Assembly: GCF_005116675.2 (NCBI RefSeq)
Contig: NZ_CP050699.1
Coordinates: forward strand, 4,240,001-4,304,000
DNA length: 64,000 nt
Direction of reading: 5' to 3'
DNA from: Desulfosediminicola ganghwensis
GTDB taxonomy: Bacteria > Desulfobacterota > Desulfobulbia > Desulfobulbales > Desulfocapsaceae
Position 1 is the stretch's first letter; the number at the start of each line of letters is the position of its first letter. The notes below the pieces were generated by a model. The model saw nothing but the letters and a program-made list of their open reading frames with translations, did not search any database and was not told where the DNA came from. A program made the position numbers and the translations under genes. Positions 38,813 to 45,179 of the stretch are shown in pieces.

Positions 38813-39172
38813 TTATCCTCCGGCCAGCTTCACCGTGAACCCTTTTTTCTTCAGGCACTCCACCAGGGCCTGTCGATGATCTCCCTGAATCTCGATAATA
38901 CCGTCTTTCACTGTGCCGCCGGTACCACTGTTCTGCTTCAGTTCTTTAGCCAGCTTTTTGAGTTCTGCCCCGACCAGAGGTACTCCGCTAACCAGCGAAA
39001 CCCCGCTTCCCTTGCGTCCTTTGGTCTGGCGGCTCACCCTGACCACGCCGTCATTCGGCACATCCTGCCGCTTTGGAGCACAACGACACTTCTTTAATTG
39101 TTGCCCGCAATCGGGACATCGCCCACCAGTCTCGGTTGAATAGACCAGGGTGGAATCACCTGATTTTCTCAT
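38813..39172 (-). CDS. SUI1/YciH-family translation factor
   Basis: The 119-residue protein starts MRKSGDSTLVYSTETGGRCP and has a Cys cluster (CPDCGQQLKKCRC) that could bind zinc. Then comes the SUI1 core: VRVSRQTKGRKGSGVSLVSG, ELKKLAKELKQNSGTGGTVK and DGIIEIQGDHRQALVECL. The family is related to eIF1. AGGAG precedes ATG 39172; a frame from 39238 would overlap topB. It follows topB after 34 bases on the same strand and is probably cotranscribed. The role in bacteria is only partly known. Confidence 0.88.
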   Translation of the reverse strand: MRKSGDSTLVYSTETGGRCPDCGQQLKKCRCAPKRQDVPNDGVVRVSRQTKGRKGSGVSLVSGVPLVGAELKKLAKELKQNSGTGGTVKDGIIEIQGDHRQALVECLKKKGFTVKLAGG

Positions 39173-39206
39173 GTTCTCAATTTCTCCTGATTCTCTTCCT
39201 GTTTCA

Positions 39207-41585
39207 TCAAGCCTGATCAGCCGCATCTTTTTTTGCAACAGTCGGATTTTGGGCCGGACGCTGCTGCTGGCGGTTATCTCCCCGTCGCTGATCGAAATTC
39301 ATAATATCACCCGGCTGGCCATTGTTATCATGCCGTAAGGGGTGACTTGCGTTTTCACATTTCCAGAAATAGAAATTGGCATTCTTCATGGAACGTATTC
39401 GCGTCATCTGTTTTTTGCACCCCTCAGCAGGACAAGGCACCTTGGCTGCGTTGGGATCGATGAGCGGCTCACCCGGTGTACCATTTTCATCCCGCAAAAG
39501 AGGACATTTCCCTTCCTTTCCTGTGGAACATGCCCAGAAGTAACTGCCCATTCTTCTGTTGCTTTCATAACGGATGAGATAGCCTTTTTCACAGTGAGGA
39601 CATTTCGGCCCTGTCTCAGGCCTATCCATAAAAGCAGCGCCGGGGGCACCATTGTAGTCCGAACGAAGCGGACAACCTTTCTCCTCACCAGCGTCACACA
39701 CCCAGAAAAATCGCCCTTTCTTGGTTTTCGACTCCAGCCTGGAAAGTCGACCGCCGCAGAGGCATCTGTATATCTTGCCGGTAACCTTTTCGGAGAACCT
39801 GGTAGCAAGGGCATAACGCACCATGTTCAACATTCGCCGGGTGAGTTCAGCCATAAACGCCTCCCGGTCAAGATCTCCCTCACAAATTCTGTTAAGAGCA
39901 TCCTCCCAGATTGCCGTCATGCCTGGATTCTTCAGCGACGGGTGGATTTTATCAATCAGTTCCCGGCCAAGGGGTGTGGAAATGAGCACCTTACCCTTCT
40001 TCTCCAGATAGGTGCGGTTCTGCAACTCACCGATAATATTGGTTCTGGTAGCAGAGGTGCCAATCCCCGAGTTTTCCTTGAGGCGTGCCTTGATCACAGG
40101 GTCATCCACATATTTATGTACCTCGGTCATAGCAACCTGCAGAGATGCCTCGGTGAATCTGCTGGGTGGTTTGGTGAACTTCTGTTCCTTTTCCACCTGC
40201 TCTATGCCAACAGGATCACCTTTTTTCACTCGAGGCAGCAATTTCTCTTTGGTCTGCTGATCGTTCAGCACCATCCACCCCTTATCCTTGATGGCAATTC
40301 CGCTGCCCTTCCACAGCTCTTCTTCGACCTCTGCCACTATCGAGCTGGAGTAGTACTGATAATCCGGGTAGAACTGTTTCAGAAATCTCTTTGCCACCAG
40401 CTGGTATATGTTCCACTCTTCTTCAGTGAGACGCGGCGGTTTCACCTCTGTGGGAATTATTCCATGATGGGCCTCGGCACCTTGCTTTTTCGTGTTCCAG
40501 GCCGGGGACTGAATTGTGGGATCTGCCTCATGCGCCCCTTCCATATTCTGGGCTCGCAAAGTGGCCAGAACACGTGGTGCATCCTCAAACATTTCGTTGG
40601 GCAAATACCTGCACTCTGTACGCATATAGGTAAGGACTTTATGCTTCTCATACAACCCCTGGCCAATATCCAGGGTTTGCTTAGGCGAGTAGCCGAACTT
40701 GTCTTCCGCTTTTTTCTGCAAATCTGAGAGCAGAAACGGCAAGGGCGGGCTCTTCCGCTTGAGGGTATCTTTTTTACTTTTTACGACTCCATCTTTACCG
40801 CTGACCTTGGCGATTACCTGCTCTGCCACTGCCGGGTTGACCAACCTGCCCTCTGCATCTAGCCCGGAAGTTAATTCGTCCGGTTCCCAGGTTGCGACAA
40901 AATTGCCTTCAGGATGCTGGACAGTAGCCCGTAATACCCAATAGGGTTTCTTGGTGAACTGCTCGATTTCCCGGTCCCGGTCCACCACCAGCGCCAGGGT
41001 CGGCGTTTGCACCCTGCCAGCTGAGAGTACATTGTTCTGGCCGGCTGCCAGGGTAAGGCCACGGGTGACGTTGATACCCACCAGCCAGTCAGCATTTGAG
41101 CGACAGATGGCGGCATCTTTGATATTTCTGAACTCGTTATTGTCTTTGAGGCTCTTGAATCCTTTTTCGATAGTCCGCACATCAAGCGCCGAGATCCAGA
41201 GCCGATCCGCCGGGCCGGTGTATCCCAGGTAATCGAGAACTTCGTCTATGATCAGCTGCCCTTCCCTCTCGGGATCTCCGGCATTGATCACCTTGTCGGA
41301 ATTTTTCAAAAGACCTTCAATTATAGCCAGCTGTTCCCTGGAACGTGGAATTGGCTCGAGTATCCATTCATCCGGAATTATCGGCAGATCGTCAGCACGC
41401 CACCGCTTGAATCTGGGGTTATAGACATGCGGGTCGGCCTGCTCAAGGATGTGGCCTACGCACCAGGTGCAGACAATATCCCCCTTGCATTTGTAGTAAC
41501 CTTTGCCACGGCCCACGATTCCCAGGTAACTGGCGAGATCCTTACCAACACTTGGTTTCTCTGCTATAAGCAGCGTTATTCCCAT
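39207..41585 (-). CDS. topB: DNA topoisomerase III with three C-terminal zinc ribbons
   Basis: The 792-residue type IA topoisomerase opens with the Toprim domain (LLIAEKPSVGKDLASYLG, NAGDPEREGQLI). It has the nucleophile tyrosine in KVLTYMRTECRYLP and the family block NSGIGTSATRTNIIGEL. Three Cys-type zinc ribbons follow (CLCGGRL..., CPHCEKGYL..., CPAEGCKKQ...), which E. coli TopB lacks; that explains the greater length. The enzyme decatenates and relaxes DNA. AGGAG precedes ATG 41585. SUI1/YciH follows in the same transcript. Confidence 0.95.
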   Translation of the reverse strand: MGITLLIAEKPSVGKDLASYLGIVGRGKGYYKCKGDIVCTWCVGHILEQADPHVYNPRFKRWRADDLPIIPDEWILEPIPRSREQLAIIEGLLKNSDKVINAGDPEREGQLIIDEVLDYLGYTGPADRLWISALDVRTIEKGFKSLKDNNEFRNIKDAAICRSNADWLVGINVTRGLTLAAGQNNVLSAGRVQTPTLALVVDRDREIEQFTKKPYWVLRATVQHPEGNFVATWEPDELTSGLDAEGRLVNPAVAEQVIAKVSGKDGVVKSKKDTLKRKSPPLPFLLSDLQKKAEDKFGYSPKQTLDIGQGLYEKHKVLTYMRTECRYLPNEMFEDAPRVLATLRAQNMEGAHEADPTIQSPAWNTKKQGAEAHHGIIPTEVKPPRLTEEEWNIYQLVAKRFLKQFYPDYQYYSSSIVAEVEEELWKGSGIAIKDKGWMVLNDQQTKEKLLPRVKKGDPVGIEQVEKEQKFTKPPSRFTEASLQVAMTEVHKYVDDPVIKARLKENSGIGTSATRTNIIGELQNRTYLEKKGKVLISTPLGRELIDKIHPSLKNPGMTAIWEDALNRICEGDLDREAFMAELTRRMLNMVRYALATRFSEKVTGKIYRCLCGGRLSRLESKTKKGRFFWVCDAGEEKGCPLRSDYNGAPGAAFMDRPETGPKCPHCEKGYLIRYESNRRMGSYFWACSTGKEGKCPLLRDENGTPGEPLIDPNAAKVPCPAEGCKKQMTRIRSMKNANFYFWKCENASHPLRHDNNGQPGDIMNFDQRRGDNRQQQRPAQNPTVAKKDAADQA

Positions 41586-41987
41586 CAATAAAACTCCTGA
41601 CAGCTAAAGGCGTAAAAACATACTGATAACATAGTTGACCCTCCCCAGCATAAACCGGTAACAATAAATTAGCAGACACTATCCTAAGAAATTCTAAAAA
41701 AAATAGTTGGGGTGAGATGAATTTTCGCGGGTTGCGAATGTACCATGGAAGAGATGATAATCACAACCGCTATTGAAAGTTTCTGACGGGGATCATGCTG
41801 CTGCCCCACGCTGAGTCCGCAGGATGTGGTAAGAATAAATAATTTTAGAGGGTGATTGTTACTCGCACTGAGGTTGCCTTATATAAAGAGAGGACAAACG
41901 TTCTCACCAATGGACTATTACCGGCAAAAATGGTAAACAGTGCTCCGTAAACTCGATATACGCTCCCATACCAATCACAAGTAACTC
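41586..41987. other. Divergent intergenic region
   Basis: About 400 bases separate topB from the phosphatidyltransferase gene. There is an AT-rich TATATAAAG near 41881-41889 but no clear -35 element at proper distance, and no gene. Confidence 0.3.
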
Positions 41988-43322
41988 ATGGGAGTTCAAG
42001 ACATACAAAGAGAAAATATGGAAAGAGTACTCGTCATTATCATCGCTTCCCTTATCGGAACCTCGTTTTATATCTGGATTGCCCGCATGGTGCAGAGGCC
42101 ATCGTTCAGGGAACTGATCTATTCACACCAGTGGCTGCTTCACCCCAACTCAATCTGCTATTGGCGTACAGCCATGGCGGTGGTCGGTTTTTTTCTTTAT
42201 TTCTTCAGCCCGTTCCAGTCACTATCCATAATCATCTTCACCTTTGCCGCAATCATGGACGGTGTAGACGGAGTTGTGGCCAGGGGCGCTAACCTCGGCA
42301 CCAAATGGGGGGAATGGCTTGATCCGTTATGCGACAAACTCACCTACTTGCCACCGTTACTGGGCTTTGCCTATATGGGCATAATTTCAGTAAAGCTTGT
42401 CTGGATATTGATCGTTATCGAATTCTTCGGGCAGTTCCTCGCCCGCCATGTGCTCAACCTGCTGAAAACCTCCGGTGCCGCCAATAACTTCGGCAAAATT
42501 AAGGCGATTATCTGTTTTGCACTGGTGATCTTTTGCGCCCTGCTGGATGCCAACCCTGCACTTATCAACCTTGGCAATGAGATACTCATCGCCTGCATCA
42601 TTTTAGCGGCTGCCTCTATTGTCTTTAAGTTTATTCCAAACCGCCTCTATGCAGACCTGCTCTCTACCATGAACTTCTGCTGCGGTGTCGCAAGCCTCTA
42701 CCTCGCTCACAATTATCTTTTTTCCTGGGCAATCTGCATCATAATCATGGGTCAGCTTTTTGATCTCTTTGATGGCAGAATGGCAGAATTACATGGTGGT
42801 ACCAAATACGGGCCCTACCTTGATGATATCGCAGACTTCGTCAGCTTCGGGCTAGCTCCTGCCTATATGCTGATCATACTGGGCGGTAATTTCGCCTGGC
42901 TTTTTGCCGCCATATACCTGGCTGGTGTGGCTTTCAGGCTTATCCGGTTCGTCACTGTAGACAAGATGCGTAATGACCTGCCCGAGGGTATTTTCAACGG
43001 CCTGCCAAGCCCCGCCGGAGCCCTGTTCGTGCTGGGCGCGACCCTTGTCTGCCCACCTGTTCTCTTGCTGGGCATGGCTGGACTTTCCACCGCTTTCATG
43101 GTGAGCCATATCCGATTCGCCCATTTTGGACGCGTAATCATGAAGCAGATTCCCCGTCCTGTCTTTTTTGTTATCAGTTCCTCAATAATTGTTATGCTGG
43201 CATACATTCTTAAGACAAAAAATATCGAGATGTTCGGTTATCTCATATTGGGTTCTGTACTGCTCTATATGGTAACCGGCAGAATGTGGCTCCCAGCTGC
43301 GAACCCGCCTCCCAAGGCATAG
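41988..43322 (+). CDS. Tandem CDP-alcohol phosphatidyltransferase fusion (PgsA-like plus PssA-like)
   Basis: The 444-residue membrane protein contains two CDP-alcohol phosphatidyltransferase domains. The first has the complete motif DGVDGVVAR...G...D...D (about 85-111, ending WLDPLCDK), closest to PgsA-type enzymes. The second (about 225-400) has DLFDGRMAELHGGTKYGPYL with DDIADFVSFGLAPA and later FNGLPSPAG, closest to phosphatidylserine synthase PssA. In the second motif the usual AR is AE and the spacing to the next Gly is one residue shorter, so its activity is uncertain. The domains attach head groups to CDP-diacylglycerol. An alternative start is ATG 42018. The gene is followed by a terminator. 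Confidence 0.85.
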   Translation: MGVQDIQRENMERVLVIIIASLIGTSFYIWIARMVQRPSFRELIYSHQWLLHPNSICYWRTAMAVVGFFLYFFSPFQSLSIIIFTFAAIMDGVDGVVARGANLGTKWGEWLDPLCDKLTYLPPLLGFAYMGIISVKLVWILIVIEFFGQFLARHVLNLLKTSGAANNFGKIKAIICFALVIFCALLDANPALINLGNEILIACIILAAASIVFKFIPNRLYADLLSTMNFCCGVASLYLAHNYLFSWAICIIIMGQLFDLFDGRMAELHGGTKYGPYLDDIADFVSFGLAPAYMLIILGGNFAWLFAAIYLAGVAFRLIRFVTVDKMRNDLPEGIFNGLPSPAGALFVLGATLVCPPVLLLGMAGLSTAFMVSHIRFAHFGRVIMKQIPRPVFFVISSSIIVMLAYILKTKNIEMFGYLILGSVLLYMVTGRMWLPAANPPPKA

Positions 43323-44717: not shown

Positions 44718-45179
44718 ATGAAAGTACTGACATCTGCCATTTTCATGCTTGGCCTCCTCACATTCCCCTCGACTTCAATGAGTGCATGGGATTGCAATGG
44801 CCCCTGGAAAGTAATGAGAAACAGTAAAACTTCGCCCTGCAAAACACTTGGTTTAAACAGCAGGACCGCAAACTGCCGCGCCGGTGATAAGTATGAGGTA
44901 TTCTGTGATGACGACAAAGGAGGAAAATACCGGATCTGCCAAGGCACTCGCCGATGTCCTTCAGCGCGTAAAAATGATCATGACTGCACCTATTGGGATT
45001 ATAACAACGACCGCCCCTGCCCTCCTGGCTACAGAAATAACGACTGTTATGGCGACTGTAGTTCCTACCGGAAAGAAAAACACTACTATAACTGCCGGGA
45101 CTGGGATTACTATTATGATCGCCCGTGTCCCAATGGATTTAAAAATTATGACTGCCGTGGCGGTTGCGAACCCAGATAA
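44718..45179 (+). CDS. Secreted Cys-rich protein with two C-terminal repeats
   Basis: The 153-residue protein has a signal peptide (MKVLTSAIFMLGLLTFPSTS, then MSA). The mature part has about 18 cysteines. Two similar repeats of roughly 27 residues lie at the end: DCTYWDYNNDRPCPPGY followed by RNNDCYGDC, and NCRDWDYYYDRPCPNGF followed by KNYDCRGGC. They are Tyr/Asp-rich with conserved Cys and a WDY-x(3)-DRPCP core. GGAAAG precedes the ATG. The spacing suggests disulfide-linked or metal-binding modules in the envelope. I do not recognise the family. Confidence 0.75.
   Translation: MKVLTSAIFMLGLLTFPSTSMSAWDCNGPWKVMRNSKTSPCKTLGLNSRTANCRAGDKYEVFCDDDKGGKYRICQGTRRCPSARKNDHDCTYWDYNNDRPCPPGYRNNDCYGDCSSYRKEKHYYNCRDWDYYYDRPCPNGFKNYDCRGGCEPR

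What the first reader, a model, noticed from the sequence alone, without database searches (positions are those of the whole stretch)
41988..43322. Two CDP-alcohol phosphatidyltransferases fused in one chain, the second with a variant motif
Seen: a complete first motif (PgsA-like) and a second PssA-like domain with AE instead of AR and one residue less before the next Gly. Known: these enzymes are normally separate and dimeric, so a fusion would act as an internal dimer. The variant second site may bind but not catalyse, or may use a different alcohol.
Basis: partly seen in the sequence, partly recalled or inferred. Interest (0 to 1): 0.6.

Follow-up and report, generated by a model that had tools for sequence, protein, structure and literature searches.

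The report
Fused PG and PS lipid synthase
In a group of sulfate-reducing bacteria, one membrane protein carries two lipid-making enzymes that other bacteria keep apart, and where it occurs the two ordinary genes are usually missing, so it probably makes the precursors of both main membrane phospholipids.

Summary
Window 41988-43322 (+) encodes one chain with two CDP-alcohol phosphotransferase domains; the first motif is complete, the second has AE for AR and one residue fewer. It is not decay: in 79 distinct homologues the four Asp, the motif Gly and the Arg known to be essential in PS synthase are invariant, and the altered motif persists in homologues of 34-44% identity. A model matches PgsA (residues 48-219) and PS synthase (210-439).

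Among 58 relatives, canonical pgsA occurs in 4 of 24 tandem genomes against 32 of 34 others; pssA in 4 of 24 against 28 of 34. In 19 of 19 tandem genomes that lack pssA and have psd, psd keeps its usual place and no pssA follows. In eleven genomes the tandem is the only CDP-alcohol phosphotransferase found, yet all eleven keep psd and pgpA.

Best reading: a bifunctional PGP synthase and PS synthase that replaced two housekeeping genes. "Binds but does not catalyse" is disfavoured; the internal dimer is untested; no activity was measured. The window's own genome keeps pssA but has no pgsA over the cut-off. New variant of a known kind.

The parts
41988..43322 (+). tandem CDP-alcohol phosphotransferase gene (444 codons as first listed; probable start 42018)
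   Evidence: start codon
42018..42089 (+). residues 11-34: N-terminal helix ahead of domain 1
   Evidence: helix 3-34 in the model; Met11 conserved
42129..42644 (+). domain 1, residues 48-219, PgsA-like fold
   Evidence: aligned to PgsA 7drj, Z 17.8, 169 residues, rmsd 2.7; TIGR00560 on 53-209 below cut-off
42258..42335 (+). domain 1 motif, residues 91-116, complete DxxDGxxAR-x8-GxxxDxxxD
   Evidence: all motif residues 79 of 79
42615..43304 (+). domain 2, residues 210-439, PS synthase-like fold (a few residues overlap domain 1 in the two alignments)
   Evidence: aligned to MjPSS 7pow, Z 21.9, 193 residues, rmsd 5.1; TIGR00473 on 227-377 below cut-off
42762..42836 (+). domain 2 variant motif, residues 259-283, DxxDGxxAE-x7-GxxxDxxxD
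   Evidence: four Asp, Gly263, Gly275, Ala266, Arg264 79 of 79; position 267 never Arg
42936..42950 (+). RLIRF, residues 317-321, counterpart of Arg101, Arg104 and Phe105 of MjPSS
   Evidence: 79 of 79; pairing from the alignment; R101E abolishes MjPSS activity (PMC8633023 section 9)

Best explanation
A single-chain bifunctional phospholipid head-group enzyme. Domain 1 joins CDP-diacylglycerol to glycerol-3-phosphate (PGP synthase, the PgsA reaction, leading to PG). Domain 2 joins CDP-diacylglycerol to serine (PS synthase, the PssA reaction, leading to PE through Psd). It replaced the separate pgsA and pssA genes in many Desulfobacterota. Each site is thought to use the usual two-metal, four-Asp mechanism; in domain 2 the phosphate-contacting Arg of the motif is gone and another basic residue (R264, or K268 in most members) is the likely substitute. 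Shown by computation: the fusion, its conservation, the two fold matches, the frequent absence of pgsA and pssA, the retention of psd and pgpA. Inferred: both activities, which acceptor goes to which domain, the substitute for the Arg. In the window's own organism a canonical pssA remains, so there the tandem is predicted to be the main PGP synthase and a second PS synthase.
For: Two domains with separate best fold matches, PgsA Z 17.8 and PS synthase Z 21.9 (Foldseek). First domains fall on the PgsA side and second domains on the PssA side of a tree. Catalytic residues invariant in 79 of 79. pgsA over cut-off in 4 of 24 tandem and 32 of 34 other genomes; pssA in 4 of 24 and 28 of 34; 16 tandem genomes have neither (tabulated). 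psd in place with no pssA after it in 19 of 19 tandem genomes that lack pssA and have psd. Eleven genomes in which PF01066 finds only the two tandem stretches all have psd and pgpA, and none has a phospholipase-D-type PssA over cut-off.
Against: No activity data. The motif Arg (Arg49 of MjPSS) is lost, the serine-contacting Ser63 is Asp280 and the metal-contacting Ser65 is Ala282. Neither half reaches the cut-off of its named family. Eight of 24 tandem genomes keep pgsA or pssA, the window's among them. Some genomes counted as lacking a gene hold a below-cut-off relative: a PgsA-like protein of 92.8 bits in G046, PssA-like proteins of about 80 bits in G001 and G003. Remote tandem genomes G077, G089 and G187 also hold a separate PgsA-like protein. 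Fisher tests are not corrected for ancestry, and most genomes are drafts.
Confidence: 0.75

Rival explanations
1. Only domain 1 is catalytic; domain 2 is a pseudo-enzyme that binds CDP-DAG or acts as a fixed dimer partner.
For: Motif Arg lost and spacing shortened; CDP-alcohol phosphotransferases of known structure are dimers (PMC8633023 passages).
Against: All four Asp and the essential Arg101 counterpart invariant in 79 of 79; pssA is gone beside a kept psd in 19 of 19, so PS must come from somewhere; no other source found in the eleven tandem-only genomes.
Confidence: 0.07
2. Domain 2 is catalytic but its acceptor is not serine; PS in these genomes comes from an unknown enzyme.
For: Ser63, a serine contact in MjPSS, is Asp280 in 79 of 79; the eukaryote-type PSS search was inconclusive because no control rang.
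Against: Closest fold is PS synthase, including strands 335-337 and 376-378 around two short helices; the counterparts of the serine contacts Asp62, Asp66 and Phe105 are kept; psd is kept while pssA is lost.
Confidence: 0.1
3. Domain 1 uses another acceptor, such as inositol phosphate, and PG is made in some other way.
For: Domain 1 also matches the archaetidylinositol-phosphate synthase model (1.9e-15) not far below pgsA (1.6e-16); G3P-binding residues were not examined.
Against: Best fold match is PgsA, Z 17.8, against 12.4 or less for inositol-phosphate synthases and AF2299; the motif ends in DPxCDK, like DPLADK of PgsA in the same genomes; pgsA is mostly missing from tandem genomes while pgpA is kept in 11 of 11 tandem-only ones.
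Confidence: 0.08

Closest known systems
PgsA, CDP-diacylglycerol--glycerol-3-phosphate 3-phosphatidyltransferase (TIGR00560; structures 7drj, 7drk)
   Same: Fold, complete motif and DPxxDK ending of domain 1
   Different: Fused to a second enzyme; score far below the family cut-off; separate branch in the tree
PssA, CDP-diacylglycerol--serine O-phosphatidyltransferase (TIGR00473; MjPSS structures 7b1k, 7pow)
   Same: Fold of domain 2, SFG after the motif, RL-x-RF and the F-x-G-x-P-x-P stretch
   Different: AE or A-hydrophobic for AR, one residue fewer, Asp for the serine-contacting Ser63; fused; score below cut-off
IPCT-DIPPS bifunctional protein of Archaeoglobus (4mnd)
   Same: A CDP-alcohol phosphotransferase domain fused to another lipid-pathway enzyme
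   Different: The partner there is a cytidylyltransferase, not a second CDP-alcohol phosphotransferase
Bifunctional cardiolipin/PE synthase of Xanthomonas (Moser 2014; seen only as cited in passages of PMC11150832)
   Same: One protein serving two phospholipid classes
   Different: Phospholipase D family (recalled); does not make PGP or PS (recalled)
Other two-domain CDP-alcohol phosphotransferases met here: L027 and L030 (AR in both domains); L160-L162 and L179 (about 500 codons)
   Same: PgsA-side domain first, PssA-like domain second; pssA missing in their genomes
   Different: Second motif keeps AR; in the 500-codon type the first motif reads DGWFAAR and lacks the usual Gly, and pgsA is kept

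Membership tests
CDP-alcohol phosphotransferase superfamily (PF01066) | Pfam score over cut-off in both domains | tested here: met
   G000 74.2 and 55.1 bits, cut-off 22
CDP-alcohol phosphotransferase superfamily (PF01066) | motif DxxDGxxAR-x8-GxxxDxxxD in domain 1 | tested here: met
   79 of 79
CDP-alcohol phosphotransferase superfamily (PF01066) | same motif in domain 2 | tested here: not met
   Asp and Gly residues kept; Arg absent in 79 of 79 and spacing 7
PgsA (TIGR00560 equivalog) | curated score cut-off 109.1 | tested here: not met
   61.4 bits
PgsA | fold | tested here: met
   Z 17.8 over 169 residues, best match of domain 1
PgsA | glycerol-3-phosphate binding residues | not tested
   No readable paper on the PgsA structure was found in the library (listing)
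PgsA | PGP synthase activity | not testable with these tools
   Indirect only: pgsA mostly absent, pgpA kept
PssA (TIGR00473 equivalog) | curated score cut-off 107 | tested here: not met
   78.3 bits
PssA | PS synthase fold with two short helices and a two-strand sheet | tested here: met
   Z 21.9 over 193 residues; strands 335-337 and 376-378; description
PssA | counterparts of MjPSS Asp41, Asp44, Asp62, Asp66, Arg101, Arg104, Phe105 | tested here: met
   D259, D262, D279, D283, R317, R320, F321, 79 of 79
PssA | counterparts of MjPSS Arg49 and Ser63 | tested here: not met
   position 267 never Arg, D280 79 of 79
PssA | PS synthase activity | not testable with these tools
   Indirect only: pssA absent beside a kept psd

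The most novel reading that the evidence does not exclude
A single-chain branch-point enzyme: the two domains form a pseudo-dimer in one membrane protein that divides CDP-diacylglycerol between serine and glycerol-3-phosphate at a built-in one-to-one enzyme ratio, so the PE to PG balance is set by substrates rather than by separate gene expression; and its second site catalyses without the motif arginine thought to neutralise the CDP-DAG phosphates.
Probability: 0.35. Interest if true: 0.75.

Novelty: new variant of a known kind. Interest (0 to 1): 0.62.

Why it matters
Bacteria are expected to make PE and PG with two separate CDP-DAG-using enzymes. If one polypeptide does both in many Desulfobacterota, annotation that looks for pgsA and pssA will report gaps in these sulfate reducers, the PE to PG branch point can be studied in one molecule, and the role of the motif Arg in this superfamily can be tested in a natural variant.

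Tried and rejected
Decay of domain 2: rejected by conservation. A relaxed second domain in the window because pssA is kept: 3 deviations at 100 conserved columns among 31 rows, no more than several others. A lipid operon around the gene: the tandem was recognised in 66 of 70 loci examined and the most frequent neighbouring gene family occurs in 10 loci. Separate or common origin of the tandem types: holding window-type and AR-type domains together is not rejected (p-AU 0.39 for second domains, 0.16 for first), and not shown either. G017, whose tandem is broken inside domain 1 while pgsA is present and domain 2 is open, looked like a natural experiment; both breaks lie at or near runs of G, so sequencing error is likely and I do not lean on it (it is counted among the 24). 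Eukaryote-type PSS (PF03034): 0 of 11 tandem-only genomes, but no control rang, so inconclusive. Ten literature searches listed no report of such a fusion by title or abstract start; the library holds only open-licence PubMed Central papers.

Full report
What is there. Window 41988-43322 (+) is one open frame of 444 codons. The methionine at codon 11 is present in 79 of 79 distinct homologues and the positions before it are not conserved, so translation probably begins at 42018. Pfam finds the CDP-alcohol phosphotransferase domain twice. The first motif is complete. The second reads DLFDGRMAE-x7-G-PYLDDIAD: AE instead of AR, and seven residues instead of eight before the Gly.

Conservation. 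A scan of one genome per species (genome contigs) gave 109 relatives, of which the best 80 were kept as loci; the record titles name Desulfobacter, Desulfobulbus, Desulfopila and kin, a few only 'Deltaproteobacteria', 'delta proteobacterium' or 'proteobacterium'. From the loci then in hand I kept 93 full-length frames (400 codons or more), 79 of them distinct; dropped were repeated copies of the window, separate PssA proteins, the divergent tandems L027 and L030, partial frames, and frames cut short by my extraction. In these 79 every motif residue of domain 1 is invariant. In domain 2 D259, D262, G263, R264, A266, G275, D279, D280 and D283 are invariant; position 267 is E in 44, L in 24 and never Arg. 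In a sample of 198 genomes of the phylum, 10 have the tandem at E 1e-19 or better; the eight remote ones (34-44% identity) keep AE followed by K or R and the short spacing, for example DLFDGRAAERWGSTPKGEIFDDVAD. Two other tandem proteins, L027 and L030, have AR with normal spacing in both domains. So the variant is maintained over long distances and is not decay.

Fold. The AlphaFold2 model from 40 aligned sequences has mean pLDDT 83.8 and pTM 0.70. Residues 210-439 match M. jannaschii PS synthase (Z 21.9 over 193 residues, rmsd 5.1) and residues 48-219 match PgsA (7drj, Z 17.8 over 169, rmsd 2.7); inositol-phosphate synthases and AF2299 follow at 12.4 or less (Foldseek). The order long helix, strand 335-337, two short helices, strand 376-378 is the one described for PS synthase in PMC8633023 (abstract and passages seen, sections 8 and 9 read).

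Residues of domain 2 against PS synthase. By the alignment, Asp41, Asp44, Asp62 and Asp66 pair with D259, D262, D279 and D283; Arg101 and Arg104 with R317 and R320; Phe105 with F321; all are 79 of 79. In MjPSS changes of the four Asp reduce or abolish activity, and R101E abolishes it. Three differences stand out. Arg49, said to contact the CDP-DAG phosphates, is E or mostly a hydrophobic residue here. Ser63, which contacts the serine substrate, is Asp280. Ser65, a metal contact, is Ala282 (40 of 40 in alignment A1); the bacterial PssA proteins seen here also lack Ser there, having mostly Cys. K268, in 76 of 79 and K or R in the remote forms, could replace Arg49, but the window has Leu there, so R264 is an alternative. 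That is inference.

What it replaces. Over 58 relatives (tabulated) 24 carry a tandem: 21 of the window's type (one broken, G017; one partial, G033) and 3 of the AR type. Canonical pgsA passes its cut-off in 4 of 24 tandem genomes and in 32 of 34 others; canonical pssA in 4 of 24 and in 28 of 34; 16 tandem genomes have neither. Among the 47 genomes at least 90% complete and at most 5% contaminated the figures are 3 of 15 against 30 of 32, and 3 of 15 against 26 of 32. psd is found in 56 of 58, not in G005 and G015. Of the six tandem-free genomes without pssA, G015 also lacks psd, G011 shows no CDP-alcohol phosphotransferase at all, and G024, G038, G039 and G051 carry another two-domain protein of about 500 codons. 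Fisher tests over the 58 give 1e-9 and 7e-7, uncorrected for ancestry. Below-cut-off relatives exist and count against a clean picture: a PgsA-like protein of 92.8 bits in G046, PssA-like proteins of about 80 bits in G001 and G003.

Synteny. I examined the psd region of 44 genomes (40 stretches, four); one stretch, G018, did not hold psd. Two usual orders appear: ilvB-ilvN-psd-pssA-(asd)-rsmD-coaD and ilvB-ilvN-psd-pssA-leuA. All 19 tandem genomes that lack pssA and have psd were examined: in 19 of 19 psd is there and no pssA follows; in G013, G016 and G030 only 14 to 52 bases separate the aligned ends of psd and rsmD. The same absence holds in G024 and G038, which carry the 500-codon protein. 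pssA is in place in the 4 tandem genomes that keep it, and in 18 of 18 other genomes, which I had picked because they have both genes. So pssA seems to have been lost from its slot while the enzyme that consumes PS stayed.

Tandem-only genomes. In 11 genomes PF01066 gives exactly two stretches, the two halves of the tandem: G004, G010, G013, G021 and G026 of the window's family, G041 of the AR type, and the remote G114, G150, G178, G205 and G230 (for G004, G010 and G026 the second stretch was beyond the printed list and is placed). G114 is rated 100% complete, G010 and G026 only 87 and 85%. G054 would be a twelfth but is split over two contigs and was left out. All 11 have psd and pgpA (partial in G041); none has a phospholipase-D-type PssA over cut-off, 4 of 11 showing weak matches. 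Unless an unknown enzyme exists, the tandem must supply both PGP and PS there. The remote tandem genomes G077, G089 and G187, by contrast, also hold a separate PgsA-like protein.

Tree. Among 71 domain sequences, first domains lie with PgsA-like and second domains with PssA-like proteins (the dividing branch has 91/81, below the starred level). Window-type and remote first domains join at 81/81, second domains at 100/97. One row, named L160_DGd1, is in truth a second domain that my script mislabelled; two rows (L005, L152) have very long branches. One origin with the AR type is not rejected.

The window's own genome. G000 has five PF01066 stretches: the two here, a canonical pssA in the psd operon (L001), a PgsA-side protein below cut-off (L003) and one other (L005). 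No pgsA passes its cut-off. So here the tandem is probably the main PGP synthase and a second PS synthase; L003 is a possible alternative. Frames of like size and score also occur in genomes that have canonical pgsA, judged by score and length alone.

Known or not. Neither half of the window protein reaches the cut-off of its named family; all 40 members of alignment A1 match both pgsA and pssA models at 1e-10 or better. Ten full-text searches listed no report of such a fusion (calls named in Tried and rejected). In PMC11150832 (passages only) PG and PE synthesis in another sulfate reducer, Desulfatibacillum alkenivorans, is described as canonical.

Limits. No activity, oligomer state or lipid data were obtained. 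The co-occurrence is strong but comparative. Most genomes are drafts, though G000, G001 and G003 are single contigs.

Noticed in passing
L160 (G038), L161 (G051), L162 (G024), L179 (G039): Another two-domain CDP-alcohol phosphotransferase of 498-535 codons. The first motif reads DxxDGWFAAR without the usual Gly but with D-x3-D; the second has AR and a long insert before the Gly. These four genomes have pgsA over cut-off but no pssA over cut-off, so this protein may replace pssA alone.
   Followed up: partly
L151 (G044), frame of 512 codons: A further two-domain CDP-alcohol phosphotransferase with AR in both motifs, in a genome that has both pgsA and pssA over cut-off.
   Followed up: partly
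L003 (own genome) and L198 (G143): A PgsA-side CDP-alcohol phosphotransferase of 192-214 codons with DVLDGW(L/I)AR and VDAIADK or LDGVADK; it forms a supported pair in the tree and has no clear family.
   Followed up: partly
L192 (G001), L193 (G003), L194 (G036): PssA-like proteins of 212-233 codons whose motif has four residues more than usual between AR and the Gly (x12 instead of x8); acceptor unknown.
   Followed up: no
L159 (G017): The tandem gene of this single-contig genome is broken twice inside or just after domain 1, at or near runs of G, while domain 2 is open; sequencing error is likely.
   Followed up: partly
window 38813-39238 (-): A 141-codon frame that looks by eye like a SUI1/eIF1-type translation factor (no search made); it overlaps the end of a topoisomerase I-like frame at 39207-41588 (-).
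   Followed up: no
window 44718-45179 (+): A small protein rich in Cys and Tyr with repeated units of the kind YxCRDWDYYYDRPCPxG.
   Followed up: no
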